Assembly (NCBI RefSeq): GCF_012849095.1
Contig: NZ_CP051680.1
Coordinates: 7,126,001-7,190,000, forward strand
Direction: 5' to 3'
From: Cohnella herbarum
Lineage (GTDB): Bacteria > Bacillota > Bacilli > Paenibacillales > Paenibacillaceae
DNA: 64,000 nucleotides
Part shown: positions 9,709 to 62,000 of the stretch, piece after piece
How the letters are laid out: each line of letters starts with the position of its first letter
Position numbering within the stretch: position 1 is the stretch's first letter
Notes under the pieces: generated by a model
The model's input: the letters and a program-made list of their open reading frames with translations, nothing else
The model's database searches: none
What the model was told of the DNA's origin: nothing
Program-made: the position numbers and the translations under genes

Positions 9709-10050
9709 GATGCTCGATTAGGAATCGAGTATCTCTTTCGTCTTTGGCTGTAGCGCCAAACTTGCAAGAATTACTCGAAAAAATCGAGTAACTCTTCGCC
9801 GTAGAGCCAAACTCGCAAGAATTACTCGAAATAATCGAGTAATTCTTCGCCGTAAAGCCAAATTCACGAGAATTACTCGAAAAAATCGAGTAACTCTTCA
9901 CCGTAGAGCCAAATTTACGAGAATTACTCGAAATAATCGAGTAACTCTTCGCCGTAGAGTCAAACTCGCAAGAATTACTCGAAAAAATCGAGTAATTCTT
10001 CGCCGTAAAGCCCAATTCACGAGAATTACTCGATTAAATCGAGTAATTTC
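9709..10050. repeat. 51-bp tandem hairpin array (family A), 6 copies plus one degenerate
   Basis: The arm GAATTACTCGA recurs at 9768, 9819, 9870, 9921, 9972 and 10023, exactly 51 bases apart each time. In each copy it is followed after a 3-5 base loop by TCGAGTAATTC or a close variant, making a stem of about 10 bp. The linkers between stems (CTTCGCCGTAAAGCCAA-type) are also conserved. A degenerate first unit begins near 9709 (GCTCGATTAGGAATCGAG). It fills the gap between the convergent nreB-like and bdr genes. The gap holds no convincing gene. Confidence 0.95.
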
Positions 10051-10076
10051 CAGCGTCACCCACCTTTCCCGCGCCA

Positions 10077-11096
10077 CTATTCCCTGAGTTGCCGGATACG
10101 CCGAGCGATCAGCTCGCCGTGGTGGCGTCCGCTTTCGATGAATATCTCGTTCGCTTCCCGTCCGGCGGCGATTACGCCCGCGATGAATAGACCGGGGACA
10201 TTCGATTCCATCGTCTCCGGATCGAAGGTCGGAATCGTCGACTCGGCATCGACTTCCGCTCCCGCATCCGTCAGCAATGTTCGCTCTGGCCGAAAACCGG
10301 TCAATGCAAGCACGAAATCGTTATCGAGCGTATAGGATTCGCTATCTTGATCGTTCGGCTGAACGGTGATCGTATTTTCCCCGATTCCGACCACTCGAGA
10401 AGAGAATATCATGCGGATATTCCCTTTATTAACCATGCCCTGAAATAGCGGTTTGACCCAAGGCTTAATGCTGGGCGAATAGTCTTCTCCTCGATAGACG
10501 ACCGTAATCTCGGCGCCTACCCGCAACAGTTCCATCGCCGCGTCCACCGCGGAGTTGTTTCCGCCGATGATCGCCACCTTCATCCCGGTATACGGATGCG
10601 CCTCGCCGAAGAAATGCGTAACCTTCGGGAGCTCTTCTCCCGGGATGCCAAGCAGGTTCGGGTGGTCGAAGTAGCCGGTCGCGACGACGACGTAAGGCGT
10701 CTCGTAGACGCGCTTTCCGCCGAACCGGTCGGAGGTTTCCACGCGGAATGCTCCGTCTTCTTGAGGTAGGATGGCAGTTGCCGCTTCATAAGCGCGGATG
10801 CGCAGTTGACGACGGAGAGCGACGTCCCGGTAATATTGCAGCGCTTCGCGGCGAGAGGGTTTGTCGTTCGGGCTCGTGAACGGAATGCCTCCGATCTCTA
10901 ACAATTCGGCGGTGCTGAAGAAGTTCATATAAGTCGGATATTGATAGATGGAATGGACGACCGCGTTTTTCTCGAGCAACAGGGGTTCGATCCCGATGGC
11001 TTGCAGTTCGAGCGCGGCGGATAATCCGCAGGGTCCGGCTCCTATGATAATGGCCTGCTCCTGCTTAGCGTTTAAGTTTGAGTTGTTTTCCTTCAT
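10077..11096 (-). CDS. ypdA: YpdA/Bdr, NADPH-dependent bacillithiol disulfide reductase
   Basis: Flavin disulfide reductase-like protein that reduces oxidised bacillithiol (BSSB). The FAD motif AIIIGAGPCGLSAALE carries the family's characteristic single Cys (C23, the counterpart of Cys14 in S. aureus YpdA) directly after the glycine motif. A second Rossmann motif, VAIIGGNNSAVDAAMEL, binds NADPH, and the C-terminal ATG-like motif VPGLFIAGVI is present. About 339 residues, normal. A GGAG site precedes the ATG. The gene is divergent from the DoxX-like gene, with an Fnr box in between, which suits a redox role. Confidence 0.9.
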   Translation of the reverse strand: MKENNSNLNAKQEQAIIIGAGPCGLSAALELQAIGIEPLLLEKNAVVHSIYQYPTYMNFFSTAELLEIGGIPFTSPNDKPSRREALQYYRDVALRRQLRIRAYEAATAILPQEDGAFRVETSDRFGGKRVYETPYVVVATGYFDHPNLLGIPGEELPKVTHFFGEAHPYTGMKVAIIGGNNSAVDAAMELLRVGAEITVVYRGEDYSPSIKPWVKPLFQGMVNKGNIRMIFSSRVVGIGENTITVQPNDQDSESYTLDNDFVLALTGFRPERTLLTDAGAEVDAESTIPTFDPETMESNVPGLFIAGVIAAGREANEIFIESGRHHGELIARRIRQLRE

Positions 11097-11169
11097 CGCA
11101 GGTAATCTCCAGTACGTTTTTCGACTATTGTATCACGTATTGCTGTCTTCAACATTTCGACACATAGTT

Positions 11170-11212
11170 TGTGATTTTATTCACACTATCTTTTTGACGA
11201 CGGGAGCATAAT
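11170..11212 (+). promoter_or_regulatory. class II Fnr-dependent promoter of the DoxX-like gene
   Basis: A perfect palindrome TGTGA-TTTTAT-TCACA (11170-11185, centre 11177.5) is followed by CATAAT at 11207-11212. The start of transcription expected seven bases further, about 11219, puts the palindrome at -41.5, the canonical position for Crp/Fnr class II activation, and there is no good -35. Confidence 0.75.
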
Positions 11213-11259
11213 GAGGGTGCAAGATCAACATAAGATTATCCGAATAGGAGATGGCTGCT

Positions 11260-11814
11260 ATGGTTTCGAAATTTCTGAAGGAAAACGTCTGGGCAGCAGT
11301 GGCGTTTACGTTTATACGCATCTATCTGGGTTGGCAGTGGATGGAGGCGGGCTGGCATAAATTAACCGGAAGCGAAGCATTCACCGCGGCGGGATTCTTG
11401 AAGAACGCGGTCGCGAATCCGATTGCGGACAAAGCGACCAAAGAAGCGATTTTCCCGACGTATACGGCATTCTTGGAGCATTTCGCGCTGCCGAACGTGA
11501 AGCTGATCGATTTCTTGATTCCCGTCGGGGAGTTTCTGGTCGGCTTGGGGCTTATCGTAGGGGGATTAACGGCCGCCGCCGCATTCTTCGGAGTGCTGAT
11601 GAACTTCCTGTTCTTGTTCGCCGGAACGGTGTCGACTAATCCTTGGCTTCTGCTTATCGGAATGATCGTGCTGGCGGGAGGGGCGAACGCGGGGAAATTC
11701 GGGCTCGACTACGTTCTGCTTCCATGGATTCGTAAAGGCTGGGCGGCCGTGACCAAGCGCAGAGCAGGAGGCAAAGCAGATAGGGACATCTTAACTCCCC
11801 GCACGCATTTGTAA
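11260..11814 (+). CDS. DoxX-family integral membrane protein
   Basis: Four predicted membrane helices with the DoxX signature RIYLGWQWMEAGWHKL near the N-terminus, then FLIPVGEFLVGLGLIVGGLTAAAAFFGVLMNFLFLFAG. DoxX-type proteins are quinone-linked subunits in thiosulfate oxidation or partners in membrane redox complexes with SodA and SseA; the exact role here is not visible. The start is ATG 11260, nine bases after GGAG; the ATG at 11251 abuts the ribosome site. A textbook Fnr-activated promoter precedes it, so it is likely induced when oxygen is low. A strong terminator follows. Confidence 0.85.
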   Translation: MVSKFLKENVWAAVAFTFIRIYLGWQWMEAGWHKLTGSEAFTAAGFLKNAVANPIADKATKEAIFPTYTAFLEHFALPNVKLIDFLIPVGEFLVGLGLIVGGLTAAAAFFGVLMNFLFLFAGTVSTNPWLLLIGMIVLAGGANAGKFGLDYVLLPWIRKGWAAVTKRRAGGKADRDILTPRTHL

Positions 11815-11825
11815 TAAAATAACGC

Positions 11826-11870
11826 AAAAAAGACTGATCGTTCCCTGTGCCGGAACGATCAGTCTTTTTT
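11826..11870. terminator. strong bidirectional terminator
   Basis: AAAAAAGACTGATCGTTCC and GGAACGATCAGTCTTTTTT form a perfect 19-bp stem with a seven-base loop. It separates the DoxX-like gene from the convergent padR gene. Confidence 0.95.
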
Positions 11871-11932
11871 GACTTTTACCTGAATAACCATCTATCTCGG
11901 GGCTACGAGCGCGCTCGGTGAGGAATGGCGTC

Positions 11933-12487
11933 TTATTTTTCCTCGGGGGGTATGACGGAAAGTACCCATTCGCACCATTCGATATTGGTTCGACAGCTCA
12001 TTAGCGCTTTGTTAAGCAAAATATAAGCTCCGAACAAGGGGGAGCGGTAGGAAGGAACTTCGCCTTCCTTCAAGCCATCGGCCTTTTGAATATTCGCGAT
12101 CTTATCTTTGTACCTTTGCAATTTCATATGGTAATACTCCAGACGATCAATGAACAGCTTACGGGAAATCGCCGGATCGACGAAAGAGACGCAATAGGCT
12201 TTAAGCATGAGTTCGTCCCTCATGACCGGGTCGGAAGCGGGCTCCGTCAACCACAGCTTCAGCGATTCTATTCCTTCTGCCGTTATGGAATAGACTTTTT
12301 TGTCCGGCTTGTCGCTTTGGGAAACCAGTTCGAACGTCACTTGGTTTTCCTTCTCCATGTTCGCGAGCAACGGGTAAATCTGACTGTGCTTGGCCGGCCA
12401 GAACGGCTGGATCTTCAGCATCAAGTCGTAACCGGACAAAGGCGAGTGGGAGATCAGGCTTAATAGTCCATAAGAGAGGGTATTCAT
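11933..12487 (-). CDS. PadR-family transcriptional repressor
   Basis: The start is ATG 12487 (MNTLSYGLLSLISH), seven bases after GGAGG; the open frame extends further upstream but lacks family similarity. The N-terminal winged helix (LLSLISHSPLSGYDLMLKI ... IYPLLANMEKENQVTFE ... KKVYSITAEGIESLKLWL) is a standard PadR domain, and the C-terminal helical Vir-like region provides dimer contacts. About 184 residues. It is divergent from a DHA2-family drug exporter, and an ATGT-N8-ACAT palindrome, the known PadR half-site pattern, sits just after that exporter's promoter. It most likely represses the exporter until a phenolic or drug ligand binds. Confidence 0.88.
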   Translation of the reverse strand: MNTLSYGLLSLISHSPLSGYDLMLKIQPFWPAKHSQIYPLLANMEKENQVTFELVSQSDKPDKKVYSITAEGIESLKLWLTEPASDPVMRDELMLKAYCVSFVDPAISRKLFIDRLEYYHMKLQRYKDKIANIQKADGLKEGEVPSYRSPLFGAYILLNKALMSCRTNIEWCEWVLSVIPPEEK

Positions 12488-12514
12488 GTCCGAGCCTCCA
12501 GGCGATAACAAACT

Positions 12515-12579
12515 TTGACAGATGGTAATTCCAGTAGTATGATAATTCTCCGTACCAATTTTTATGTAAAAATATACAT
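12515..12579 (+). promoter_or_regulatory. sigma-A promoter of the DHA2 exporter with PadR-type operator
   Basis: TTGACA (12515-12520), 17 bases, TATGAT (12538-12543) is a near-consensus promoter with start near 12550. ATGT-AAAAATAT-ACAT (12564-12579) follows at about +14 to +29 and matches the PadR pattern ATGT-N8-ACAT, a position fit for blocking elongation or promoter clearance. Confidence 0.75.
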
Positions 12580-12607
12580 AGTACTGTGGAGGGTGTGGAG
12601 TAGAGAG

Positions 12608-14068
12608 ATGAACAGCGGCAACACCAATCAAGAAATACGTTTTCTACCGGTAATGGTTGCAATTTTTATAGGTTCGTTCCTATGTATTCTTGCTTCTAGC
12701 ACGATTAACATCGCTTTGGAGATTTTGAAAGACCATTTCGATACGTCATTGGATACGATCACATGGACGTTAACCGGCTTTATGCTTGCCATGGGCACGA
12801 CGGCGCCGATCGTGGGTTATTTGGGCGAGAAGTTCAGCTACAAGAGATTGTACCTCTTCTCGTTGATCGGATTTACGTTATCTTCCGCGTTATGCGCCGC
12901 CGCATGGGATGAATCGTCCTTGATCGCGTTCCGCGTATTACAGGGCGCGTTCAGCGGATTGATCATTCCGGCAACGATGTCTATCATCTATCAGATTATA
13001 CCAAGGGAAAAACAACCGATGGCCATGGCGTTATGGGGACTGGCTTCCATGATGGCTCCGGCATTCGGGCCTACGCTTAGCGGTTGGCTGCTTGAACACT
13101 ACGATTGGCAGTGGTTGTTCCTGATGAACGTGCCGATCGGTTTAATCGCGATCTGGTGCGTCATCGCTTATATTCCTTATTATCGGCTTAGCGTTCCCAA
13201 GAGTTTCGACGCATTCGGACTCATTACCGTTATCGCGAGCAGTTCGGCCTTGTTGCTGGCGCTGGGACAAGGACATAATTGGGGCTGGGATTCTTGGGAA
13301 ATTATCTCCTTGCTCGTCGGGGGTTCGATCACTCTCGTTCTTTTCATATGGAGAGAGCTTACGGCCAAGACGCCTCTATTGAACTTACGAGTGTTCAAGA
13401 ACGGCAGATATACTCTAAATCTCATTATCGCCAACATTCTGACGATCAGCCTATACTCGGGAACTTTCCTTACCCCGGTATTCTTGCAAAGAATCCAGCA
13501 CGTGTCCGCGATGGACACCGGACTTATCCTGTTGCCGGCTTCGCTGGCCATGGCGCTCGTGATGCCGATCGTAGGCAAGCTCTACGGGATCGTCGGACCG
13601 CGCTGGCTCATGGTTACGGGGATCGTCCTGTTATCCGTAGGGTCGTTAACGTTAAGCTGGCTTAGCATCGACGTATCCCATTCCTACATTTTATTCTGGA
13701 TGATCGTTCGTAACCTCGGCATCGCGTTGGTCATGATGCCTTCCAGCAACGCGGGCATGGAACTGGTACCTCGCGAATTGTCCGGTCACGCGTCCGCCAT
13801 CATGAACTGGACGAGGAACGTGTTCGGCTCGTTCGCGATCGCCATCTTTACGACTTTGCTGGCAACGCGGTCCGTACACCACGGCATGGATTTCGCCATG
13901 GCGGGAGAAACCGATAAAGCATTTATCTCGATGATGTCCTTTACGATGAGCGTGAACGACGTTTACCTGATCGCGACCTTCATCGCGGTAGCCGCCCTGC
14001 CTCTAAGCTTACTCGTCGGGAAGGTCAAACACCCGCAAGAAGAAAACCTCAAGAAAGAGGCGGCTTAA
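12608..14068 (+). CDS. MFS drug exporter, DHA2 (EmrB/QacA) family
   Basis: Start ATG 12608 (MNSGNTNQEIRFLP) with GGAG seven bases upstream. About 486 residues with 14 predicted membrane helices. Motifs of the family are visible: TWTLTGFMLAMGTTAPIVGYL and LGEKFSYKRLYL after helix 2-3 (motif A), RVLQGAFSGLIIPATMSII (motif B/C region) and GPTLSGWLLEHYDWQWLFLMNVPIG. It uses the proton gradient to export toxic compounds. Expression is probably controlled by the divergent PadR protein through the operator in its 5' untranslated region. Confidence 0.9.
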   Translation: MNSGNTNQEIRFLPVMVAIFIGSFLCILASSTINIALEILKDHFDTSLDTITWTLTGFMLAMGTTAPIVGYLGEKFSYKRLYLFSLIGFTLSSALCAAAWDESSLIAFRVLQGAFSGLIIPATMSIIYQIIPREKQPMAMALWGLASMMAPAFGPTLSGWLLEHYDWQWLFLMNVPIGLIAIWCVIAYIPYYRLSVPKSFDAFGLITVIASSSALLLALGQGHNWGWDSWEIISLLVGGSITLVLFIWRELTAKTPLLNLRVFKNGRYTLNLIIANILTISLYSGTFLTPVFLQRIQHVSAMDTGLILLPASLAMALVMPIVGKLYGIVGPRWLMVTGIVLLSVGSLTLSWLSIDVSHSYILFWMIVRNLGIALVMMPSSNAGMELVPRELSGHASAIMNWTRNVFGSFAIAIFTTLLATRSVHHGMDFAMAGETDKAFISMMSFTMSVNDVYLIATFIAVAALPLSLLVGKVKHPQEENLKKEAA

Positions 14069-14092
14069 CCCCGATCGACAGTCGACTTATAC

Positions 14093-14139
14093 AAACGGAT
14101 GCGAGATGGAATGATATTCCGTCCCGCATTCGTTTTTTT
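14093..14139 (+). terminator. intrinsic terminator of the DHA2 exporter
   Basis: AACGGATGCGAGATGGAA pairs with TTCCGTCCCGCATTCGTT across a TGATA loop (three G-U or mismatch positions), followed by seven T. Confidence 0.85.
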
Positions 14140-14141
14140 CA

Positions 14142-14150
14142 TGCTATAAT
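14142..14150 (+). promoter_or_regulatory. extended -10 promoter of the queuosine transporter gene
   Basis: TGCTATAAT gives a TGn-extended, perfect TATAAT. The start of transcription would be about 14157, directly before the two hairpins of the leader. Confidence 0.6.
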
Positions 14151-14159
14151 AAGCCGTTC

Positions 14160-14214
14160 GCTCCGCAAAGCGGAGCCGCGGTTCGCAAACTCCCGCGTCA
14201 ACAAAACTAGGAGG
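14160..14214 (+). ncRNA. preQ1 class I riboswitch with 5' hairpin
   Basis: After a 5' hairpin (GCTCCGC-AAA-GCGGAGC, 14160-14176), the core has a 5-bp P1 stem CGCGG (14177-14181)/CCGCG (14193-14197), an 11-base loop and an A-rich tail TCAACAAAACTAGGAGG (14198-14214). Stem, loop size and the AACAAAACTA tail match the preQ1-I class as seen in the Thermoanaerobacter tengcongensis example. The tail runs straight into AGGAGG, the ribosome site for ATG 14223, so preQ1 binding would hide it and shut off translation. The downstream gene is a queuosine-precursor transporter, the expected target. Confidence 0.85.
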
Positions 14215-14222
14215 ATGGTTTA

Positions 14223-14903
14223 ATGTTTAACTTAGGTTGGGGCGTGTTATTCGTCCTGGTCAACTTTGCGTTGTTCTTGATCTGTTACCGGTTGTTCGGC
14301 AAGATGGGGCTGTACGCCTGGATCGCCGCGGCGGTCGTGCTCGCCAACATTCAAGTGGTCAAGACGATCGGAATGTTCGGCTTCGTCATGACGCTCGGCA
14401 ATACGATGTACGGCACGATCTACCTGACGACGGACTTGTTGAACGAGAAGTACGGAGAGAAGGAAGCGAAAAAAGCGGTTTGGTTCGGATTTTTCTTCTT
14501 GCTCATGTCTACGGCCATTATGCAGATGGTGCTCGTGTTCGAACCGCAGGAGACCGATTTCGGACATCCGGCGTTACAGACGATATTCGGTTTAGCTCCG
14601 CGTATCGCGCTTGGCAGCTTGGCCGCGTATCTGGTCAGCCAATTTCTCGACGTTAAGCTATTCAGCAAGCTCAAGGTCAAATATCCGACGAGGAGCCAGC
14701 TATGGATCCGCAACAACGGCAGCACGGGCGTTAGTCAATTGGTCGATACGCTCATTTTTTGCTCGATTGCTTTCGCCGGGGAATATCCGTGGGACGTTTG
14801 GTGGGAAATCGTAATTACGACTTATGTGCTGAAGTTTATTATTTCCGTCGCATCGACACCGATCATCTATTGGGCTAGAAACTTTAAGTTCAAGACGGAA
14901 TAG
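14223..14903 (+). CDS. queuosine precursor transporter (YhhQ/QPTR family)
   Basis: About 226 residues with six predicted membrane helices. The signature GNTMYGTIYLTTDLLNEKYGEKEAKKAV and the C-terminal RNNGSTGVSQLVDTLIFCSIAF are diagnostic for the COG1738 family that imports preQ0/preQ1 for tRNA queuosine modification. The 5' leader carries a preQ1-I riboswitch that overlaps the ribosome site, giving independent support for the substrate. It is monocistronic: a terminator follows within ten bases. Confidence 0.93.
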   Translation: MFNLGWGVLFVLVNFALFLICYRLFGKMGLYAWIAAAVVLANIQVVKTIGMFGFVMTLGNTMYGTIYLTTDLLNEKYGEKEAKKAVWFGFFFLLMSTAIMQMVLVFEPQETDFGHPALQTIFGLAPRIALGSLAAYLVSQFLDVKLFSKLKVKYPTRSQLWIRNNGSTGVSQLVDTLIFCSIAFAGEYPWDVWWEIVITTYVLKFIISVASTPIIYWARNFKFKTE

Positions 14904-14913
14904 ACCAAATACA

Positions 14914-14957
14914 AAACCGGCCCCAAGTCCATCGGCTTGCGGGCCGTTTATTATTTT
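14914..14957 (+). terminator. terminator after queuosine transporter gene
   Basis: AACCGGCCCCAAG and CTTGCGGGCCGTT pair with one bulged base, followed by TTATTATTTT. Confidence 0.7.
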
Positions 14958-15011
14958 ACGCGAATAAAATTTAAGGCGGGATGCAACCCGATCGCGAGGA
15001 GACGCATCTTA

Positions 15012-15596
15012 TTGTGTAGGAGAGGGGGAGCAGACCTGGATGTCGTTCGGAGATTACTAGAGAGAGACGAGCTGGCGCTTCAAGCCTTAATGGCGCAGTA
15101 CGGCGATGAATTGCAACGTACCGCCTTCTTGCTTGTGAAAGATCGGCAGGCGGCAGAGGAAGCGGTCATGGATACTTTTATACAAGCTTATCGCAAAATT
15201 CATCAGCTTAAAGAGCCGGATAAGCTCCGCGGTTGGCTCCTCCGAATCGTCGTGAATCGGTGCCGGATGAAAATGAGAACTTGGAGCTGGAGGAATCTGT
15301 TTCCCTCGGCTTCTATCGAACGGATGATCGAGGAAACCGAACCCGGTCCGGAAAATCTCTTGCTAGCGGAATGGCGCAATCAACGCTTGAGCGAGGCGAT
15401 CCATCGGCTTGATTATCGGTATCGAGAAGTCATTACGTTGTACTATTACAACGAACTTAGCGTGCTGGAGATCGCCGAGCACGTCAAGAGCAACGAGAAT
15501 ACGGTGAAAGCCAGATTGGCCAGAGGCCGAATGAGGCTGAGGCAAATGCTTGAGGAAGAGGGGGATGGGGATGAAGACGGAGCGGGAGCACTATAA
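15012..15596 (+). CDS. ECF-type RNA polymerase sigma factor
   Basis: Sigma region 2 (DELALQALMAQYGDELQRTAFLLVKDRQAAEEAVMDTFIQAY, cited in part) and region 4 (LDYRYREVITLYYYNELSVLEIAEHVKSNENTVKARL) are both clear. No ATG lies at the expected start: TTG 15012, ten bases after GAGGAG, gives a 194-residue protein; CTG 15036 after GGGGGAG is an alternative. The first gene of a three-gene set, it overlaps the next frame, which encodes a one-helix membrane protein placed where an anti-sigma factor is expected. Region 2.2 VMDTFIQAY has the usual DxF motif. Confidence 0.87.
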   Translation: MCRRGGADLDVVRRLLERDELALQALMAQYGDELQRTAFLLVKDRQAAEEAVMDTFIQAYRKIHQLKEPDKLRGWLLRIVVNRCRMKMRTWSWRNLFPSASIERMIEETEPGPENLLLAEWRNQRLSEAIHRLDYRYREVITLYYYNELSVLEIAEHVKSNENTVKARLARGRMRLRQMLEEEGDGDEDGAGAL

Positions 15597-15915
15597 AACA
15601 AAGCTGGACGAAGAACTTGGCCGGATGAGGTTTACGAAAGAAGCGGAAGTGTTGGGGCTCGCCCATCCCCGCACTTGGAGGCAGAAATGGAGCGCCTTGT
15701 GGAACAAGGAAATCGAAGTGTCGCTTCTTCCGCTCGGCATGAGCATGGCCGTCATTATTGCGATTATGGCGGTCGTTCAAGTACGGAATTCGGAAATTAG
15801 CGATGAAACGCGCCAAGGGGATCAAAGGCAACTCATAGAAGCCGGCGGCAACACCTATTGGAAAGATCAATACGAGAGGGCGGTGGCTTCGCTTGAAGGT
15901 GACCCTCAAGGTTAA
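15571..15915 (+). CDS. small single-pass membrane protein, probable anti-sigma factor
   Basis: Start ATG 15571 (MKTEREHYKTKLDEELGRM), about seven bases after a G-rich ribosome site; earlier in-frame ATGs sit inside that site. A charged cytoplasmic N-terminus of about 50 residues is followed by one membrane helix (VSLLPLGMSMAVIIAIMAVV) and a short outer tail. No zinc-binding HxxxCxxC motif is present. Overlap of 26 bases with the ECF sigma gene and the topology suggest it holds the sigma factor at the membrane. Sequence family not recognised; the role is inference from position. Confidence 0.6.
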   Translation: MKTEREHYKTKLDEELGRMRFTKEAEVLGLAHPRTWRQKWSALWNKEIEVSLLPLGMSMAVIIAIMAVVQVRNSEISDETRQGDQRQLIEAGGNTYWKDQYERAVASLEGDPQG

Positions 15916-18154: not shown

Positions 18155-18190
18155 AGCCCAGGGATAAGGAAAGAGATCGATTGTTGCCTA

Positions 18191-18237
18191 ATGTCACAAT
18201 GTCATTCCTTGACATCAAGGAACTCCGCTCCTAAACT
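18191..18237 (+). promoter_or_regulatory. promoter of Fsr-like exporter with palindromic operator over the -35
   Basis: TTGACA (18209-18214), 17 bases, TAAACT (18232-18237). The -35 is embedded in ATGTCA-TTCCT-TGACAT (18199-18215), a perfect 6-bp inverted repeat, and a further direct ATGTCA lies at 18191. This arrangement fits a repressor binding site; the regulator is unknown. Confidence 0.6.
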
Positions 18238-18275
18238 TGATATTCATAAGCTTTATCTCATCGGAGGAATGACTC

Positions 18276-19502: not shown

Positions 19503-19503
19503 C

Positions 19504-19556
19504 GAAAAGCCCCGCCGGTTTGCCATCAAGGCAAATCGGCGGGGCTTTTCGTTTTG
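19504..19556. terminator. strong terminator after Fsr-like exporter
   Basis: GAAAAGCCCCGCCG..TTTGCC and GGCAAA..CGGCGGGGCTTTTC form a stem of about 20 bp with one mismatch and end in TTTTC-GTTTT. Confidence 0.95.
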
Positions 19557-19600
19557 GAAGTGGAACATTACCTTTCAGGAAACAATCTTGACCGAATAGG

Positions 19601-50674: not shown

Positions 50675-50705
50675 GCGGAGGATGGCGTGCCGGCAAGTTA
50701 TGTCC

Positions 50706-50747: not shown

Positions 50748-51008
50748 TTGTATAGGAAGTAGAATTTTGTTTGATTCTTCAATATTTAGCTCCTGAGCAA
50801 AGTACACATATTCATTTATATAGACGAGTACTAAAAAATCCATATTTTTTTAACTCAAAGCTTGTCGATACTTTCTATTGGTCTATCAGTTATTTCGTCA
50901 ATAAAGCCTTTTAACAGCAGCGCTTAAAGATTTCCCGGAATGTTATCTATCGCCTATCTATGCTTAATAAAAATACATACTCGATTCTCACAACACTCAA
51001 AATTTAAT

Positions 51009-51195
51009 TGTAAAATGTACATTTAGTTTCGTCCAAATTCCTCGTTTCCACCTTCTAAATGTAAAAAGTGCACCTAGATTGATTGATTTCGTCTGTGATC
51101 GAAATATTCACCTAATCTAGTTGTAGGTTTTACACTTAGTCATTTGAGAAAGAAAAATTCCCCCGAACTAGTTGTAGATTGTACACTTAAGTGTA
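51009..51195. repeat. tandem repeat family B, four diverged units of 51/62/51 bp
   Basis: A block of the form TGTAnAnTGTACACTTAG, preceded in later units by CTAGT, starts at 51009, 51060, 51122 and 51173. Intervals are 51, 62 and 51 bases. Linkers are less conserved than in family A. The last unit contains the palindrome TGTACACTTAAGTGTACA. Confidence 0.7.
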
Positions 51196-52243: not shown

Positions 52244-52382
52244 CCGTTTCTCCGCTCCCTTTTACCGATCAACAATGTCCGTTTTACAAATATAAGATGT
52301 CCGTAATGCCGCAATACATGCGAGTGGCTCCATTATATCATAAAGAGATAAATCGCCTGTCATTCAGAGAGGAGTTAACTCA

Positions 52383-55052: not shown

Positions 55053-55057
55053 GCGGC

Positions 55058-55240
55058 GATAGAGTTATGGGGAGTTTAATGGGCTTATTGTGAGGGGCTC
55101 GGGTGACTTGGTTTCTGGGAATAAGCTCGTGTGGCGGTACTGATGGGTTTTTGGGAGGCTCGGTTTCTGGGAATAAGCACGTGTGATGGTACTCATGGTG
55201 CTTGGATGACTCGGTTTCTGGGAATTTTTATGTGGGAAGT
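55058..55240. repeat. tandem repeat family C, three units of 51-52 bp
   Basis: CTCGGTTTCTGGGAATAAGC-type blocks start (GGTTTC) at 55110, 55162 and 55213, intervals 52 and 51. GTGTG..GGTACT-ATGG follows in the first two. A vaguer unit precedes from about 55058. Confidence 0.85.
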
Positions 55241-55351
55241 TGTAGACATAGGCTATTATTTATGAGATATAAGAGGAATAAACCGTAAAGGTGGATTCTT
55301 GCCGAAGACTAGATAGAGAGTGACGGAAAGACGCTGAGGCTTTAGGGCATT

Positions 55352-55490
55352 CAGCGTCTTTGGCAATTTGCGATAGTGACAGGGTGTGAACGGAGCTCCC
55401 TGCCATTGTCGCAAAATGCGACAATAGCGCGCTGTGGATGGTGCATTCCCCTCCCATTGTCGCGAAATGCGACAATGGCGAGACAACCGC
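55352..55490. repeat. tandem hairpin repeat family D, two clear and one degenerate 51-bp unit
   Basis: CCATTGTCGC-AAA-TGCGACAAT at 55403 and CCATTGTCGCGAAATGCGACAATGG at 55454 are perfect or near-perfect hairpins exactly 51 bases apart. A degenerate unit with TTTGCGATAGTGACAGGG precedes them. Confidence 0.9.
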
Positions 55491-55524
55491 AGCACCTACA
55501 TCCTTAAATGAGGTGGAAACGAGT

Positions 55525-56355
55525 ATGCGAGTAAAGTTGGACAGGTTTCCGGATGGCAAGAGAATGGCGTTAACGATGAGTTATGACGATGGCATCTATC
55601 ACGATCGCAGGCTCGTGGAGACGATGAATCGTTACGGCCTTCGCGGAACGTTTCATTTGAATTCAGGGATGTTGGGCAAGAAAGATTACTTGGAGCGGGA
55701 TGAGATTGCGACGTTGTTCGCGGGGCACGAGATATCGGCGCATACCGTGACTCATCCGTTTCTGCCTTTTATTCCGAAGGAGCAAGCGGTACAGGAATTG
55801 CTGAACGACCGAATCGCTTTGGAAGAATTGGCGGGGTACCCGGTTCGAGGTCTATCCTATCCTTTCGGCTCGTGGGATGGTTCCATCGTATCAATGTTGG
55901 ATTCCGTCGGGATCGAATACGCCCGGACGGTAGACAGTCATGGCTCTTATCGGATGCCGGACAACTTTCAGCAATGGTCTCCGACATGCCATCACCGCGA
56001 TATGATCGGACATGCCGAGAAATGGCTTAGCGACAATAAGGTATTTCCGACAATGGCACTCCTGTACGTGTGGGGGCATAGCCATGATTTCGATCGGGAG
56101 AACAATTGGGAGCTGCTGGACCAGTTCGGGCAACTCGTTGGCAACCGCTCCGACATCTGGTATGCGACGAACATGGAAATCGTGCTTTATTCCAAAGCGT
56201 TGAAGGGATTACGGTTCTCGGCGTCGGGACATCTGGCGCACAATCCTTCCGCTATTCCGGTATGGGTTGCCGTAGATAACCGCGAAATACGAATAGATGG
56301 CGGCGCGACCGTCCATTTGAAGGAGGACGCGGAACCGGATGGAAGGCGCTTATAA
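55525..56355 (+). CDS. polysaccharide deacetylase (NodB homology, CE4)
   Basis: Start ATG 55525 (MRVKLDRFPDGKRMAL) after GAGGTGG. 276 residues, no signal peptide. The CE4 metal site is D22 (with D21) in TMSYDDG, H73 and H77 in SAHTVTHPF, and the motif YPFGSWDG follows. Removes acetyl groups from N- or O-acetylated sugars; an intracellular site suggests oligosaccharides rather than cell wall. The next gene starts 17 bases before its end. Confidence 0.88.
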   Translation: MRVKLDRFPDGKRMALTMSYDDGIYHDRRLVETMNRYGLRGTFHLNSGMLGKKDYLERDEIATLFAGHEISAHTVTHPFLPFIPKEQAVQELLNDRIALEELAGYPVRGLSYPFGSWDGSIVSMLDSVGIEYARTVDSHGSYRMPDNFQQWSPTCHHRDMIGHAEKWLSDNKVFPTMALLYVWGHSHDFDRENNWELLDQFGQLVGNRSDIWYATNMEIVLYSKALKGLRFSASGHLAHNPSAIPVWVAVDNREIRIDGGATVHLKEDAEPDGRRL

Positions 56356-57292
56356 GTCGAAGCTGAGCGAACGGCAGCTTAATGAAGTTATCCAAGCCAA
56401 GATGAATAGTACCATTCGGTCTTACTCCGAGCTTACCGAGGGATGGGCGAACAGCGCGTATTCGATCGAAATGGAGGATGGGAAAAAGGTAGTTCTCAAA
56501 GCGCGTCCTCCCGCGGACATCCGATACATGCGGTGCGAAGTCGACCAGATGAAAACGGAAGTTGATGCGATGCGGCGATTGGCATCAAACCGATCCTTAC
56601 CGATTCCTCATATTTACGTCTACGATCAATCGCTTGAGCTTCTTCCGGTCGAATATTTCATTATGGAGCATCTTGAAGGTAAGCCTTACAATCAAGTGAA
56701 GGCCGAGTTGCCAGAGGAACAAAGGGATGCGATTGAACGCCGGCTGGGGGAGCTCAACTATCAAATCAACGAGTGTATTGGAGAAGGCTTCGGCTTCTAT
56801 TCCAGGCCAACCGACCGTTCATGGCGTGATACGTTCAAAGAAATGATCTTCGGGGTTCTTGAGGACGGGAAGGAAGCGGGAGTGTCGTTGCCTATCGCTT
56901 ACCCGGAATTGGAACGCCTCATTGAAGAGCGATTATATTCGTTAGACGAGGTCATTGAGCCGAGACTGTTACATTGGGATCTATGGGATGGCAACGTGTT
57001 CGTAAAAGACGGGCAGCTCTCCGGCATTATCGATTTCGAGCGGGCGATATGGGGCGATCCGATCATGGAGCATTATTTTAGCCACTTTAATCCATCGGTC
57101 CCTTTCAGGCAAGGGTACGGGATTTCCTTGACCGAACCTTCGCAGCTCGCCAGAAGAAAACTATACGATCTTTACCTTGACCTGATTCTGTATATCGAAT
57201 GCGCTTTTCGCAAGTATGATAACGAGAACCATGTAAAATGGGCCTATGATAACCTAGCGCAAGGCTTGGAACGCTTCTGCGCATCCGAATAA
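56339..57292 (+). CDS. APH-family (aminoglycoside phosphotransferase-like) kinase
   Basis: 317 residues. A kinase-like fold with the ATP-anchoring Lys in KKVVLKARPP, the catalytic loop LLHWDLWDGNVFV (H212, D214, N219; Trp where most relatives have Gly or His) and the metal motif GIIDFERAIWGDP (D232). Family members phosphorylate aminoglycosides, homoserine, methylthioribose or sugars; co-translation with a polysaccharide deacetylase favours a sugar-related or small-molecule substrate over drug resistance. Confidence 0.82.
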   Translation: MEGAYKSKLSERQLNEVIQAKMNSTIRSYSELTEGWANSAYSIEMEDGKKVVLKARPPADIRYMRCEVDQMKTEVDAMRRLASNRSLPIPHIYVYDQSLELLPVEYFIMEHLEGKPYNQVKAELPEEQRDAIERRLGELNYQINECIGEGFGFYSRPTDRSWRDTFKEMIFGVLEDGKEAGVSLPIAYPELERLIEERLYSLDEVIEPRLLHWDLWDGNVFVKDGQLSGIIDFERAIWGDPIMEHYFSHFNPSVPFRQGYGISLTEPSQLARRKLYDLYLDLILYIECAFRKYDNENHVKWAYDNLAQGLERFCASE

Positions 57293-57378
57293 TAGATTGA
57301 ATCGCCGATGTTACCGAAAGCGTTGAAGACGATTCAAAGAGAACTTTAATCTCAGCGATAACCAATCCCGTTCCCGAT

Positions 57379-57402
57379 AATCCCGGCGTGCGGGATTTTT
57401 AT
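57379..57402 (+). terminator. terminator after APH-like kinase gene
   Basis: AATCCCG-GCGTG-CGGGATT followed by TTTATTC. Confidence 0.85.
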
Positions 57403-57514
57403 TCGATCGGCTAATATCGCACGCTTTTATTTAACATTGTCTCATTGTCCCTCCGTAGCTCGGGATTTAAGATAGAGGCGGACTGAGTAAAGGGGCGAGA
57501 GGGGATTAATAAGG

Positions 57515-58351
57515 ATGCGTACAATCGCGGTTACGGGCGGGAGTGGCAAGCTGGGAGTTTGGGTGGTCGATGATCTGCTTCGCCAAGGTTATCAAGTCGT
57601 ATCGTTGGACGAGAAGCGGTCCGACAAATTACGTTGCAAGCAACTGAAGGTGGATCTATCCGATTTCGGTCAAGTCGTCGGAGCGCTGCACGGTTCGGAT
57701 GCGATCATCCATCTCGCTGCGATTCCGGCGCCGTTAGGATATACGAACGATTATATTTTCTCGAACAACGTTAGATCGACTTATCATGTGCTTGAAGCCG
57801 CGTCCGTACTAGGAATCGATAAAGTCGTCACCGGTTCGAGCGAATCGGCTTATGGCTTCTGCTGGGCGAAGACGCCATTCTCGCCGAACTACGTACCCGT
57901 CGATGAGCTTCATCCCGCGTTGCCTCAAGAATGCTACGGACTATCGAAGATCGTCGGGGAGCAAACGGCGGAGATGTTCCATCGCCGAACCGGCATGCGG
58001 GTTTACTCGCTGAGGTTCTCCATGATCGTGACGCCGCAGGAATATTCGCGTTCCGCCATCTCCGAGCCTGAAAGGTACAAACGCATTCTCTGGAGCTACA
58101 TCGATATCCGCGATGCCGTTCAGGCATGTATCGCGTCTTTGAGATCGGACGATGAGGGCTGCCATACGTTAAACATCACGAGTAACGATACGTTGAGCGA
58201 TTGGCCGACGGAAAGGCTATTGTCGCATTTCTATCCCGAGATTACGGATCGACGTCAAACTTTCGCGGGCAGAGAAGCCATCGTAAGCAATGCGGGAGCC
58301 AAGAGCATCTTGAATTGGACCCCGGAGTTCACCTGGGAACAGAATAAATAA
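57515..58351 (+). CDS. NAD-dependent epimerase/dehydratase (extended SDR)
   Basis: 278 residues. The N-terminal TGGSGKLG (residues 7-14) binds NAD(P), KVDLSD follows, and the catalytic set includes S109/S111 in VVTGSSESAYG and Y141-x3-K145 in ECYGLSKIVGEQ. Similar to short UDP-sugar epimerase-like and uronate dehydrogenase-like proteins of Paenibacillus. Likely oxidises or epimerises a sugar from the surrounding catabolic routes; the substrate cannot be read from sequence. Confidence 0.85.
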   Translation: MRTIAVTGGSGKLGVWVVDDLLRQGYQVVSLDEKRSDKLRCKQLKVDLSDFGQVVGALHGSDAIIHLAAIPAPLGYTNDYIFSNNVRSTYHVLEAASVLGIDKVVTGSSESAYGFCWAKTPFSPNYVPVDELHPALPQECYGLSKIVGEQTAEMFHRRTGMRVYSLRFSMIVTPQEYSRSAISEPERYKRILWSYIDIRDAVQACIASLRSDDEGCHTLNITSNDTLSDWPTERLLSHFYPEITDRRQTFAGREAIVSNAGAKSILNWTPEFTWEQNK

Positions 58352-58360
58352 ATACCGGAA

Positions 58361-58392
58361 AGTTTAAGATTACCCCCGTGTAATCTTAAACT
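58361..58392. promoter_or_regulatory. perfect 13-bp inverted repeat without T-tract
   Basis: AGTTTAAGATTAC-CCCCGT-GTAATCTTAAACT. It sits ten bases after the SDR stop and 70 before the YesN start. GAATTCGG follows, so as a terminator it is incomplete; an operator is possible. Confidence 0.6.
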
Positions 58393-58413
58393 GAATTCGG
58401 TTATGATTGTTCT

Positions 58414-58427
58414 TGTAAGCGTTTTCC
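58414..58427 (+). promoter_or_regulatory. cre-like CcpA site upstream of yesN-yesM pair
   Basis: TGTAAGCGTTTTCC matches the cre consensus TGNAARCGNWWNCA at 13 of 14 positions. It lies 36 bases before the response regulator ATG. Confidence 0.6.
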
Positions 58428-58462
58428 AGAATGCTAACCCAATAGCGGGAAGGGGATGGATT

Positions 58463-60100
58463 ATGTTGCGCGCTCTCATAGTGGACGATGAGTTCGAGAT
58501 TCGGGAAGGCTTGCGCAAGAGAGTGCCCTGGTTGGATTACGGGATCGAGGAAGTGTTCGTTGCCGATGACGGCGATACGGCACTGGCGATCGCCCTGGAG
58601 AAGAAGCCGGATATTATCGTAACCGATATTAAGATGAGCCGGTTGTCCGGTCTGGAATTTCTCGGAGCTCTGTACCGCGAGAACGAATATTTATGGAAAG
58701 CCGTCGTCATAAGCGGTTATGACGATTTCGAATTGGTGAAGCAAGCGATGCAGCTCGGCGCGATGGACTATATTCTCAAGCCGATCAATACGGAAGAACT
58801 TGGACGAATCGTACGCAAAGCTTCGGATCAAATCATGCGGGAGAGAATGGATCAGCACAACCAAGCCCAGATGAAAAATCAGATGCAGCTAGCCGTGCCG
58901 AAATTGCGGGAAGAGCTGCTTCGCGAAATTATAGAGCACGAATACGATCCTTATCGGGAAACCAGAATCGTTCATCGCCTCCAAGCTTTGGATCTGGAAT
59001 GGATGACGCAACAGCCGTTGCTCATGATGATCGTGGAAGTTGACGATCTGAAAGCGATCGTTAATCGGGCCGGGTATACGAACGAGAAGGAGCTGGTGTT
59101 ATTCGGTATTGGCAACGTCGTTAACCAGACGCTGACCGAGGAATTTCCGTTCCCGTTCGCCTTGTTCAGCGATTCCGGCTTGAGGTGGGGGGCGGTTCTT
59201 AGCTGCAAAAATCCGGAACAGATTCTGCTCGGCAATTCGGTAGCTCAGATCTGTCTGAGGAGAATCAACGAATTCGTTAAGGTGAAGGCCAGTATCGGAA
59301 TCAGCTCGATGCCCAAGGATTTGAAGCATATCCACGAGATGTTCTTGGAGTCGGGCGAACTGTTGGACAGGAAAATCGTATACGGAGGCAATCGGATTTT
59401 TACGGAACAAGACTTCGAATTCGACGGAGAGAGGGCGGAGTTTTCCCTTCGAGAGTCCGAAGAAGTACTCGATCTTGTCAAATACGGCTCGGATGAAGAG
59501 ATCAGCGTCTCGATGAACGGATTCGTGGACATGGTGCAGTCTTGGAGACTGGCCAATCTCAAGGATGTTCAGCAACAAATATTCAAATGGTTGATGGGAA
59601 TCTTTCGGAGCGCGGCAGCGGCCGGATGGCCGGATCGAAGTTGGGAACGAAACCCGATCTCTCTCTGGGAGCAGTTAGAGCAATTCGATAACTTGCAGTC
59701 CCTTCGGGCTAAGACCGAAGGGTTTCTTCTCTCGATGGCAGCCGATTTCCGCAAACTGACGGCTTCTCCTAGCCAGATCGTGTTGGAGGCGGAGAAGATG
59801 ATACGCAAAAGGTATTCGGAAAATCTTTCTCTCCAGATCGTAGCCGACGAGGTGCATGTGACGCCGGTGTGGCTCAGCAAGCTATTCAAGAAGGAGAAGA
59901 AGCAAACCTTTTTGGAATATTTGACCGAGGTCAGAATTATGAAGGCGAAAGATATGCTCGGGGACGTCAAATACAAGATTTATCAGATTTCGTATCAAGT
60001 CGGATATAAGGACCCGGTTCACTTCACTAAGCTATTCAAGAAACAGTCCGGGTTCACGCCCAAAGAGTATCGGAAACAAAGGGGAATCGCGGATGATTAA
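58463..60100 (+). CDS. YesN-type response regulator with AraC domain
   Basis: Start ATG 58463 (MLRALIVDDEFEIREG) after GGGAAGGGG. 545 residues: receiver with Asp in IIVTDIKMSRLSG and Lys in YILKPINT, a GGDEF-like degenerate middle region of about 260 residues, and a C-terminal AraC domain (LQIVADEVHVTPVWLSKLFKKEKKQTFLEYL in part; IYQISYQVGYKDPVHFTKLFKKQSGFTPKEYRK in part). It overlaps the kinase gene by eight bases; here the regulator comes before the kinase, the reverse of the pair at 25094-28508. Confidence 0.92.
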   Translation: MLRALIVDDEFEIREGLRKRVPWLDYGIEEVFVADDGDTALAIALEKKPDIIVTDIKMSRLSGLEFLGALYRENEYLWKAVVISGYDDFELVKQAMQLGAMDYILKPINTEELGRIVRKASDQIMRERMDQHNQAQMKNQMQLAVPKLREELLREIIEHEYDPYRETRIVHRLQALDLEWMTQQPLLMMIVEVDDLKAIVNRAGYTNEKELVLFGIGNVVNQTLTEEFPFPFALFSDSGLRWGAVLSCKNPEQILLGNSVAQICLRRINEFVKVKASIGISSMPKDLKHIHEMFLESGELLDRKIVYGGNRIFTEQDFEFDGERAEFSLRESEEVLDLVKYGSDEEISVSMNGFVDMVQSWRLANLKDVQQQIFKWLMGIFRSAAAAGWPDRSWERNPISLWEQLEQFDNLQSLRAKTEGFLLSMAADFRKLTASPSQIVLEAEKMIRKRYSENLSLQIVADEVHVTPVWLSKLFKKEKKQTFLEYLTEVRIMKAKDMLGDVKYKIYQISYQVGYKDPVHFTKLFKKQSGFTPKEYRKQRGIADD

Positions 60101-61910
60101 GGCTTCGTTGCGTCTCGCTTCCTCTTTTCGGAATAAAATGATTCTTATTTTCTTCGCGATTACGATCGTTCCGTTCATCATATTCGCTTACTACGCTTAT
60201 ATGAAATCGATCGAGGGCATCAAGAACGCGAACGCGACGTTCTCCATGAGTTATTTGCAGCAAGCCAAAATGAACTTCGAAACGTATCTGGATCAATTGA
60301 ACGATCAGGTCAACGACTTGATCGGCAACAGATCCGTGCAGCAATGGTTGGAACGCGAGCCTTGGAGCAACGAAGAGGAAGAGGCTTTCGCCGTGAACAT
60401 GTTAGGGTTCGTCTATCAGCGGAAGCCGCAGATCGATGCGCTCAGAGTTCGGATCCTGCCGTTGAATCCGTCCCGTTATCCGACCTATATGAACACGATG
60501 GGGGAATCGATCGAGGTCGGCGAAGAGGAATGGTTCAGGAAGTCGAAGGCTACCGTCGTACCGACCTGGCATCTGTCTATGCCTAAGGAAGGTCTCTACG
60601 GGAGACCTTTGCTTTCCTATATTAAGAGGTTTACGGGCTTATATGACCGCATTCCTCGGGGGATGATCGTAACGGACCTTGCCGAGGATCACTTAAAGAG
60701 ATTCTTTTCTCCTTCGGAGAGCATGGAAGGCCAGAAGTTTCTCATCGTCGGCGCGGATGGCCGGGTGCTGTTCGACTCCTTCGACAATGAATGGACGGGG
60801 GACGTCATTCCGTCGAAGAAATTTCTGCAGATTCGGGAAACATCCCCCGAGGGTGCGGAAACGCTGATGATGGACGGGGAAAAGAAACTGATCACGTATA
60901 CGAAAATGAATAACGAGCCGTGGACGATCGTAAGCATGACGCCATTACATGCGTTGACGCAACCGATCAATGTCATGAATCGGCTGCTGATCTTTTTTAT
61001 CGCGGTCTATTTGATCTGTTCCGTCGGCGTCGTCATCTATATCACTTTGAACTTTACCCAACCTGTCGTTAGGCTCGTCCGTCTGATGAGAAGGCTGGAG
61101 GAAGGGGATTTCGAATACAAGGTTCCCATGTCGGCCCGTAAGGATGAGATCGGCTGGCTGTATCGCGGATTCGGAAGCATGATCAAGAAGATCGAAGGTT
61201 TGATCGAGCAAACGTCCCGTTCGGAAAGAAACAAGAAGGAGCTGGAATTCCAAGTTTTGAGCCACCAAATTAATCCCCATTTTCTATACAATACGCTGGA
61301 GTCGATTCGATGGAAGGCGGAGAATCACGGGAGAAGCGATATCGGAGAGATGGTTTCCGCGCTAGGGAATTTGCTGCGGCTTAGCTTGAATCAAGGGAAG
61401 GACATTACGACGGTCGGACGCGAGATCGAACAGGTGAAAGCATACGTGCAGATCGAACAAGCCCGTATCGGGATGCCGCTAAGGGTTCTGTATTTCTTCG
61501 ACGAGGAAATGCTGGAGCTGCCGTTCATGAGACTGCTTCTGCAGCCGCTCGTCGAGAATGCGATTCAGCATAGTATCCGGGATAATTTCGAGAAAGGTAA
61601 AGTCATCATGTCCGGTTACGTGGAAGATCAGGATCTCGTTATCGAAATTACGGATAATGGCAAAGGGATTCCGGAGTCGGTTCTGACGCAGTTGGATGCC
61701 GAGGATACCGGAGGAAGAGGCAAACGTCGCCAAGGCGTCGGATTGCGTAACGTCAATGAGCGCTTGAAACTCTACTTCGGGAACAACTACAAGTTGCTCA
61801 TCGAAACCGGCGAGAGCATGGGGACGAAGATCACGATCCGTCACCCGATTCTGGATTCGCTCGGGGAAGCGGATACGGATGGTGATGAGAGAGCGAGGCA
61901 AATCCTCTAG
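60093..61910 (+). CDS. YesM-type membrane sensor histidine kinase
   Basis: 605 residues. Two membrane helices (about 16-36 and 290-312) bracket a Cache-like extracellular sensor; HAMP (LVRLMRRLEEGDFEYKVPM), then the phosphorylated His in SHQINPHFLYNTLESI and an ATPase domain with QPLVENAIQHS, DNGKGI and GVGLRNVNERL. All key residues are intact. Cognate kinase of the overlapping YesN-like regulator; the alpha-mannosidase gene on the other strand is the nearest candidate target. Confidence 0.92.
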   Translation: MIKASLRLASSFRNKMILIFFAITIVPFIIFAYYAYMKSIEGIKNANATFSMSYLQQAKMNFETYLDQLNDQVNDLIGNRSVQQWLEREPWSNEEEEAFAVNMLGFVYQRKPQIDALRVRILPLNPSRYPTYMNTMGESIEVGEEEWFRKSKATVVPTWHLSMPKEGLYGRPLLSYIKRFTGLYDRIPRGMIVTDLAEDHLKRFFSPSESMEGQKFLIVGADGRVLFDSFDNEWTGDVIPSKKFLQIRETSPEGAETLMMDGEKKLITYTKMNNEPWTIVSMTPLHALTQPINVMNRLLIFFIAVYLICSVGVVIYITLNFTQPVVRLVRLMRRLEEGDFEYKVPMSARKDEIGWLYRGFGSMIKKIEGLIEQTSRSERNKKELEFQVLSHQINPHFLYNTLESIRWKAENHGRSDIGEMVSALGNLLRLSLNQGKDITTVGREIEQVKAYVQIEQARIGMPLRVLYFFDEEMLELPFMRLLLQPLVENAIQHSIRDNFEKGKVIMSGYVEDQDLVIEITDNGKGIPESVLTQLDAEDTGGRGKRRQGVGLRNVNERLKLYFGNNYKLLIETGESMGTKITIRHPILDSLGEADTDGDERARQIL

Positions 61911-62000
61911 CCCGGCTGGGCCGGGTTACAGCGGGGAAATGCAGCGTATGGGCGAATTAGCCCGGGTGGACCGGGTTACAGCGAGGAAAAACAGCGCGGA
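61908..62000. repeat. tandem repeat family E, two 50-bp units
   Basis: TAGCCCGGnTGGnCCGGG begins at 61908 and 61958, 50 bases apart, each followed by TTACAGCGnGGAAA and CAGCG. The CCCGG..CCGGG arms form a hairpin. The first unit begins with the stop codon of the kinase gene. Confidence 0.85.

What the first reader, a model, noticed from the sequence alone, without database searches (positions are those of the whole stretch)
9709..62000. Five unrelated intergenic tandem-repeat families share a 50-52 bp unit
Arrays at 9709-10050 (51,51,51,51,51), 51009-51195 (51,62,51), 55058-55240 (52,51), 55352-55490 (51) and 61908-62000 (50) differ in sequence yet have the same unit length. Three of five sit between convergent genes, and at least three form hairpins in each unit. 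A common length without common sequence argues for a shared mechanism of amplification or a spacing need such as helical phasing (51 bp is close to five turns), loosely like BIMEs of enterobacteria. I know of no named class that fits.
Basis: seen in the sequence. Interest (0 to 1): 0.82.

Follow-up and report, generated by a model that had tools for sequence, protein, structure and literature searches.

The report
Evenly spaced DNA hairpins host transposons
A bacterium of the genus Cohnella carries many short DNA arrays between genes whose repeat units differ in sequence but are nearly always 51 bases long, often hold a small hairpin, and are favoured landing sites of several jumping genes, one of which inserts at a fixed distance from the hairpin.

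Summary
In 80 sampled 20-kb blocks of the host genome (a Cohnella), 29 of 44 non-coding tandem arrays have a 50-52 bp unit, and 17 of 18 arrays with at least five copies are exactly 51 bp. All seven non-coding arrays in ten named Cohnella loci are 51 or 52 bp; ten arrays in 70 Paenibacillus-type loci range from 33 to 106. Arrays favour convergent gaps (8 of 25 against 140 of 1244, p 0.004). The families are not wholly unrelated: of 18 non-redundant hairpins 14 have TA at both feet, 19-21 bp apart, and arms vary by compensatory change. In 6 of 7 IS256-type copies with an 8-bp target duplication, its centre lies 20.5 and 30.5 bp from the flanking hairpin centres. Best reading: a new variant of REP/BIME-like extragenic palindromes, with pitch held near five helical turns. 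What holds the pitch is not proven.

The parts
9707..9735 (.). single hairpin before array 1, perhaps the terminator of the upstream gene; resembles the array palindrome
   Evidence: sequence read by eye
9767..10046 (.). array 1: 5.5 units of 51 bp, family A, palindrome of the type TTACTCGA(A/T)nTCGAGTAA in each unit
   Evidence: TRF; core spacing 51 x5; ssDNA hairpin z -4.46; sister arrays
51004..51190 (.). array 2: four 23-bp palindromes CTAnnTGTAnnnnnTACAnnTAG-like, spaced 51, 62, 51; part of a dispersed element of about 200 bp or more with 22 matches in the genome, its own included
55105..55225 (.). array 3: 2.4 units of 51-52 bp, no clear hairpin; distant relative of the L044 array
55404..55477 (.). 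array 4: two hairpins ATTGTCGC(A/G)AAATGCGACAAT, 51 bp apart; family also in L245, L246
61908..61978 (.). array 5: two TA-footed 21-bp hairpins TAGCCCGG...CCGGGTTA, 50 bp apart; the first begins in the stop codon of the predicted upstream gene; family also in L068
8636..9688 (+). sensor histidine kinase gene (PAS, HisKA_3, HATPase_c), left neighbour of array 1
10077..11096 (-). pyridine nucleotide-disulphide oxidoreductase gene (PF13738), convergent with the kinase across array 1

Best explanation
The arrays are REP/BIME-like extragenic palindromes. The typical unit is a 19-21 bp imperfect hairpin, usually with TA at both feet, plus a spacer, repeated head to tail at 51 (50-52) bp, close to five turns of B-DNA. 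They sit towards the 3' ends of genes and are enriched between convergent genes. SHOWN on samples: the sharp pitch; compensatory change in hairpin arms within one homologous family; the gene context; strong targeting by three IS3-type elements and one IS256-type element; insertion of the IS256-type element at 20.5/30.5 bp from hairpin centres despite unrelated target letters. INFERRED: the hairpin is used as a DNA structure or a bound DNA site on one face of the helix, so neighbours must stay in register, which holds the pitch while letters drift; IS elements have come to use the array as a harmless, recognisable dock; arrays grow and shrink by slippage or recombination and spread within a genome by copying.
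For: Pitch: 26 of 44 non-coding arrays exactly 51 bp and 29 of 44 at 50-52 (two pairs of these, in L041 and L083, are one array split by an IS); 12-mer lag 51 dominates; all 7 arrays in ten named Cohnella loci are 51 or 52. Context: 8 of 25 array gaps convergent against 140 of 1244, p 0.004; 13 of 17 arrays in tandem gaps lie nearer the upstream gene's 3' end. Hairpin: in family G, chosen by sequence, pairs +-5 and +-4 are 20 of 20 Watson-Crick with three pair types each, 12 expected; among 21-bp hairpins in the host's non-coding DNA the TA-footed are commonest (46, next AT 19; units of one array count several times), in coding DNA they are not among the top five. IS dock: 23 of 28 sites against 246 of 3953, p about 1e-23 (copies in one array are not independent); three different IS in one array; other Cohnella genomes 19 of 30 sites. 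Register: IS256-type offsets; secondary spacings 62 and 72.
Against: Under strict scoring only 14 of 37 array consensuses have an inverted repeat that at most 5 of 100 shuffles match, and units of window arrays 2 and 3 fold poorly. Non-homologous hairpin pairs show no 51-bp peak. Rayleigh tests for 10.5-bp periodicity over all repeat lags: Cohnella p 0.91 and 0.53; Paenibacillus 0.026 over 15-130 bp but 0.27 over 36-95 bp. The phasing V-test was chosen after seeing the data. No binding protein is identified. Five of 28 host IS sites lack a 50-52 repeat at the score used; IS3-type relatives in G012 (1 of 4) and G042 (2 of 4) often do not use arrays. Two of the six fitting IS256-type sites (L291, L293) have weak hairpins (best centres score 5-7 of 9), and outside the host only L297 gives a clear automatic offset.
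Confidence: 0.6

Rival explanations
1. Length inherited by descent. All arrays derive from one ancestral 51-bp tandem repeat copied about the genome; the letters drifted and the length stayed because unit-length changes cannot easily spread through an array. No function or helical constraint is needed.
For: Hairpin-bearing families share TA feet; families A and G contain many diverged members; 51 bp in the host and 51 or 52 in relatives for the same family.
Against: With the indel/substitution ratio measured on dispersed family B copies (21 events to 686 substitutions), or higher ones, a drift-only simulation keeps 16 families all within 50-52 bp with probability from 0.03 to below 0.001. The ratio comes from one family and the count of 16 families is my own reading, so this is only moderate. 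Pairs at 62 and 72 bp are not explained.
Confidence: 0.18
2. A fixed-length amplification machine. An enzyme acting at one hairpin (nick, flap or hairpin processing) duplicates about 51 bp at a time, so every new array gets the same unit length whatever its sequence.
For: Same junction, different array family: the convergent reductase/kinase gap carries a different 51-bp array in L130 than in the host, and none in L131, L132 and L135; L134 also has another 51-bp family just 3' of the reductase.
Against: 62 and 72 bp spacings and 47-bp arrays exist; no candidate enzyme was found; no Y1 transposase in the host.
Confidence: 0.2
3. RNA-level function: the hairpins work in transcripts at gene 3' ends (mRNA stability, attenuation or termination), and the DNA pitch is incidental.
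For: 3' end and convergent location; compensatory change in arms.
Against: RNA does not explain a rigid 51-bp pitch or a base-exact IS256-type insertion offset. No Rfam family matches in the window. Orientation of units relative to transcription was looked at by eye in a handful of arrays only (family A 3 of 3 with transcription, family G mixed) and decides nothing.
Confidence: 0.12
4. Chance or artefact of repeat finding.
For: Two of the five window arrays have only two units.
Against: Repeat-lag events in the host's non-coding segments: 186 against 3 after shuffling; the peak is found by independent methods and in independently assembled named genomes.
Confidence: 0.01

Closest known systems
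REP / PU elements and BIMEs (GTAG- and CGTC-tagged extragenic palindromes)
   Same: short extragenic imperfect hairpins in many copies, downstream of genes and between unidirectional and convergent genes, clustered (PMC3733652 abstract); targets of IS elements (PMC1525189 abstract and passages)
   Different: TA at both feet and no GTAG/CGTC tag seen; head-to-tail units at a 51-bp pitch and not alternating; letters vary widely between families in one genome; no Y1 transposase in the host
REP-targeting IS: IS1397, ISKpn1, ISPsy8 (IS3 family), IS621 (IS110) and others; families IS3, IS110, IS4, IS256, IS5 per PMC1525189 (passages)
   Same: several IS families use extragenic palindromes as targets
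   Different: here an IS256-type element inserts outside the hairpin, 20.5/30.5 bp from hairpin centres, with unrelated target letters; I did not compare with the exact insertion points of the known ones
Streptococcal BOX elements and mycobacterial MIRU-VNTRs (recalled, not tested)
   Same: intergenic tandem units of some tens of bp
   Different: as recalled, no shared pitch across unrelated families
Eukaryotic satellite DNA whose unit length matches the nucleosome (recalled, analogy only)
   Same: common unit length without common sequence
   Different: no nucleosomes; pitch near five turns

Membership tests
REP (tagged extragenic palindrome) | 20-40 bp imperfect palindrome in many extragenic copies | tested here: met
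   hairpins of 19-21 bp, not in every family
REP (tagged extragenic palindrome) | unpaired GTAG or CGTC tag at one foot | tested here: not met
   18 non-redundant hairpins read by eye and by column composition: TA at both feet in 14 of 18, no common tag; no formal tag search was run
REP (tagged extragenic palindrome) | Y1 (RAYT) transposase in the genome (GTAG type) | tested here: not met
   PF01797: 0 hits in host, 5 of 14 controls; 12 of 37 Cohnella genomes (host included in the 37) have a hit, others with arrays such as G023 and G003 have none
REP (tagged extragenic palindrome) | preference for gene 3' ends and convergent gaps | tested here: met
REP (tagged extragenic palindrome) | target of IS elements | tested here: met
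BIME | palindromes in alternating orientation (abstract of PMC2817692 in the listing) | tested here: not met
   arrays are direct head-to-tail repeats, spacer included
BIME | binding of gyrase or IHF (recalled) | not testable with these tools
   no binding data
CRISPR array | identical repeats with unique spacers | tested here: not met
   the whole 51-bp unit repeats, spacer included
Known structured RNA (Rfam 15) | match above gathering score | tested here: not met
   0 matches in the window; arrays outside the window not searched

The most novel reading that the evidence does not exclude
Cohnella chromosomes carry a structure-coded lattice: hairpins held in phase at five helical turns at gene 3' ends, recognised by a host factor or by their DNA shape, on which unrelated transposases dock with base-pair precision, so that pitch and hairpin form, and not sequence, are what selection keeps.
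Probability: 0.3. Interest if true: 0.92.

Novelty: new variant of a known kind. Interest (0 to 1): 0.77.

Why it matters
A repeat class defined by pitch and hairpin form more than by letters would be missed by sequence-based repeat databases. It gives a natural, replicated set of insertion sites in which target choice by an IS256-type transposase can be measured to the base pair relative to a hairpin, which makes hairpin-directed target choice and helical phasing directly testable. It also offers a bacterial parallel to the question why satellite units keep a length when the sequence does not.

Tried and rejected
Y1/RAYT-driven REP movement: no Y1 domain in the host. Rfam: nothing in the window. 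Spacing rule between any two hairpins: no 51 peak for non-homologous pairs (a small excess at 62 in the host, 9 pairs, was not tested). 10.5-bp periodicity over all repeat lags in Cohnella: not significant. Register across borders of adjacent unrelated arrays, read by eye: mixed (50, 62, 41 and 92 bp, but also 20, 60, 69 and 104), so not used as evidence. Coding explanation (51 = 17 codons): 26 of the 27 arrays of 51 bp lie outside predicted genes, and sister arrays in relatives have 52 bp. The idea that genes between twin arrays were cargo cassettes: they proved to be transposases. Literature: nothing on such arrays in Cohnella or Paenibacillus in the listings; subscription journals are mostly not held. 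PMC3733652 and PMC1525189 were seen as abstract and passages; all other papers as search listings only.

Rows dropped before counts: of 35 transposase-domain hits in the host (27, 8) 28 were analysed; dropped were L266 (right end unresolved), L268 and L269 (alike over the whole stretch) and L283-L286 (fragments or single copies). In other genomes L298, L327 and L349 gave no boundaries; 13 single-copy loci were only scanned for arrays (3 of 13 have one); L308, L315, L319 and L323 were not analysed. No random-position control was run for the other genomes, and lags of 50-53 were allowed there. Whether G040, whose distant IS256-type element hit 0 of 4, has 51-bp arrays at all was not established (none in its four loci), so it is an incomplete control. 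Covariation is on palindromes chosen for pairing, so the sequence-chosen families are the fair test. The word 'most' for TA feet rests on hairpins that passed a pairing score: 60 of 100 units, 18 after removing redundancy.
Full report
OBSERVATION. All five arrays are present with the spacings reported: 51 x5; 51, 62, 51; 52 and 51; 51; and 50. Tandem Repeats Finder alone reports only the first and third, because the others are two to four diverged units. A small hexamer gene finder trained on host blocks puts arrays 1, 2 and 5 between convergent genes, and arrays 3 and 4 in one gap between co-directional genes.

HOST. The window is bases 7126001-7190000 of an 8.35-Mb contig. The reductase beside array 1 has its best named relatives in ten Cohnella records at 75-85% identity, so the host is taken as a Cohnella.

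UNIT LENGTH. Of 44 non-coding arrays in those blocks (TRF score 80 or more, period 20-160), 26 have period 51, two 50 and one 52. Among arrays with at least five copies 17 of 18 are 51, the other 47. Two pairs among the 29, in L041 and L083, are single arrays split by an insertion sequence. Eight more arrays overlap predicted genes; one of these is 51. Counting identical 12-mers by distance in the first 60 blocks gives 2108 pairs at 51 and 55 at 52; most other strong lags are multiples of 51 or multiples of 9 that I attribute to one collagen-like coding repeat. Other Cohnella samples: period 50-52 in 4 of 6 non-coding arrays of G023, 3 of 4 of G012, 2 of 3 of G003 and 0 of 1 of G009, although IS-bearing loci of G009 do show 51-52 bp repeats. 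In ten named Cohnella loci all seven non-coding arrays, found in five of the loci, are 51 or 52 bp. In 70 named Paenibacillus-type loci ten arrays have periods 33, 36, 36, 39, 41, 42, 42, 50, 50 and 106. As arrays, the rule is thus a Cohnella feature; but pairs of homologous palindromes in the Paenibacillus-type loci also favour 51-53 bp (7 of 14 segment-spacings).

SEQUENCE FAMILIES. 59 units, relatives included, fall into 23 clusters at a threshold above every reversed-sequence control. Centred on their palindromes, many look alike. Of 100 units 60 have a hairpin of odd centre above the score used; of 18 non-redundant ones, 14 have TA at both feet, 21 bp apart in 10 and 19 bp in 4. This set was chosen for pairing, not for TA. 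In family G, chosen by sequence, pairs +-5 and +-4 are Watson-Crick in 20 of 20 distinct palindromes with three pair types each, against 12 expected; position +-8 is a conserved A-C mismatch (14 of 20). In family A pair +-7 shows 7 C-G and 5 G-C but 8 of 21 non-pairs, so the constraint is real but not strict. Among 21-bp hairpins in the host's non-coding DNA the TA-footed are the commonest (46, next AT 19); in coding DNA they are not in the top five. Under strict scoring only 14 of 37 array consensuses beat at least 95 of 100 shuffles, and some window units do not fold: not every family has a clear hairpin.

CONTEXT. 8 of 25 array-bearing gaps are convergent, against 140 of 1244 gaps in all (Fisher p 0.004); two are divergent. 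In co-directional gaps 13 of 17 arrays lie nearer the 3' end of the upstream gene. The convergent gap of array 1 is 63, 33 and 75 bp without an array in L131, L132 and L135, and 494 bp with a different 51-bp family in L130; L134 also has a 51-bp array just 3' of the reductase. Arrays are thus gained or lost whole at a conserved junction.

INSERTION SEQUENCES. Genes found between twin arrays proved to be transposases. All PF00665 and PF00872 hits in the host were then taken (27 and 8); other transposase families were not examined. In 28 resolved copies of one IS256-type and three IS3-type elements, 23 empty sites carry a 50-52 bp repeat, and 25 carry that or a TA-footed hairpin within 35 bp; random non-coding positions do so in 246 and 299 of 3953 cases. 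Three different elements lie in one array (C1:4846743-4851002). The 8-bp target duplications of the IS256-type element share no letters (for example CGAAAACA, CCATGTGT, AGGAATTC), yet in 6 of 7 copies that have one its centre is 20.5 bp from one hairpin centre and 30.5 bp from the next. Four of the six have strong hairpins; in L291 and L293 they are weak. The seventh (L290) sits between hairpins 62 bp apart, at 30.5 and 31.5; the eighth copy (L287) has lost one side and its remaining hairpin is at the same distance. IS3-type elements, where a hairpin was found, cut at its centre, at 5-6, or at 10-11.5 bp. In other Cohnella genomes 19 of 30 resolved sites carry a 50-53 bp repeat: close IS256 relatives 7 of 8, IS3-type relatives 12 of 18, and a distant IS256-type element of G040 (about 37% identical) 0 of 4; whether G040 has such arrays is not known. 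Outside the host the IS256 offset is clear automatically only in L297 (-30.5 and 22.5); L299, L310 and L318 are compatible with weak hairpins, and L312, L322 and L311 are not clear.

WHAT HOLDS THE PITCH. Fifty-one bp is close to five turns. Homologous palindrome spacings other than 48-54 bp are few (17 in 194 blocks and loci) but lean to whole turns, 62 and 72 above all; a V-test referred to 51.5 gives p 0.0014 at 10.5 bp and 0.001-0.004 for the five periods tried, chosen after seeing the data. Against this, tests over all repeat lags show no periodicity in Cohnella (p 0.91 and 0.53) and p 0.026 or 0.27 in Paenibacillus, depending on the range, and hairpin pairs without homology show no 51 peak. 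Drift of length by descent alone is unlikely but not excluded: probability 0.03 to below 0.001, depending on divergence and indel rate assumed. An amplification ruler would also give one length, but not 62 and 72. I hold phasing most likely, at moderate confidence.

COMPARISON. The closest class is REP/BIME. Shared: extragenic hairpins, 3' ends, convergent gaps, and IS targeting by several IS families including IS3 and IS256 (PMC3733652 and PMC1525189, abstracts and passages). Not shared: the GTAG/CGTC tag (by reading), alternating orientation, a Y1 transposase in the host (12 of 37 Cohnella genomes have one). So it works like a REP system but fails defining features and is best called a new variant. 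No description was found in the searches.

Noticed in passing
window 51004-51190; L010-L017: Array 2 belongs to a dispersed element of about 200 bp, longer in some copies, with 22 matches in the genome and four palindromes spaced 51, 62, 51; it looks like a small mobile element, but its ends and target duplication were not determined.
   Followed up: partly
G000 C1:4846743-4851002 (L273, L292, L281): Three different insertion sequences lie in one 51-bp array.
   Followed up: yes
L059:10474-10687, L065:15543-15972: A separate 47-bp tandem family containing GGGATAATGGC; one of its two arrays is the only non-51 array with five or more copies in the sampled non-coding DNA.
   Followed up: no
L052:13973-18573: Very long coding repeat (27-bp unit, about 160 copies) that looks collagen-like.
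   Followed up: no
window 55438-55564: The longest ORF of the polysaccharide deacetylase gene starts inside array 4; the coding model prefers a start at 55564, so annotations may call the start too early.
   Followed up: partly
L126:8556-8816 (G025, another family of the order): A 77-bp non-coding tandem array, not of the 51-bp class.
   Followed up: no
L242:4432: A 51-bp array with a family G hairpin is called as part of a gene by the simple gene finder; probably a false gene call.
   Followed up: no
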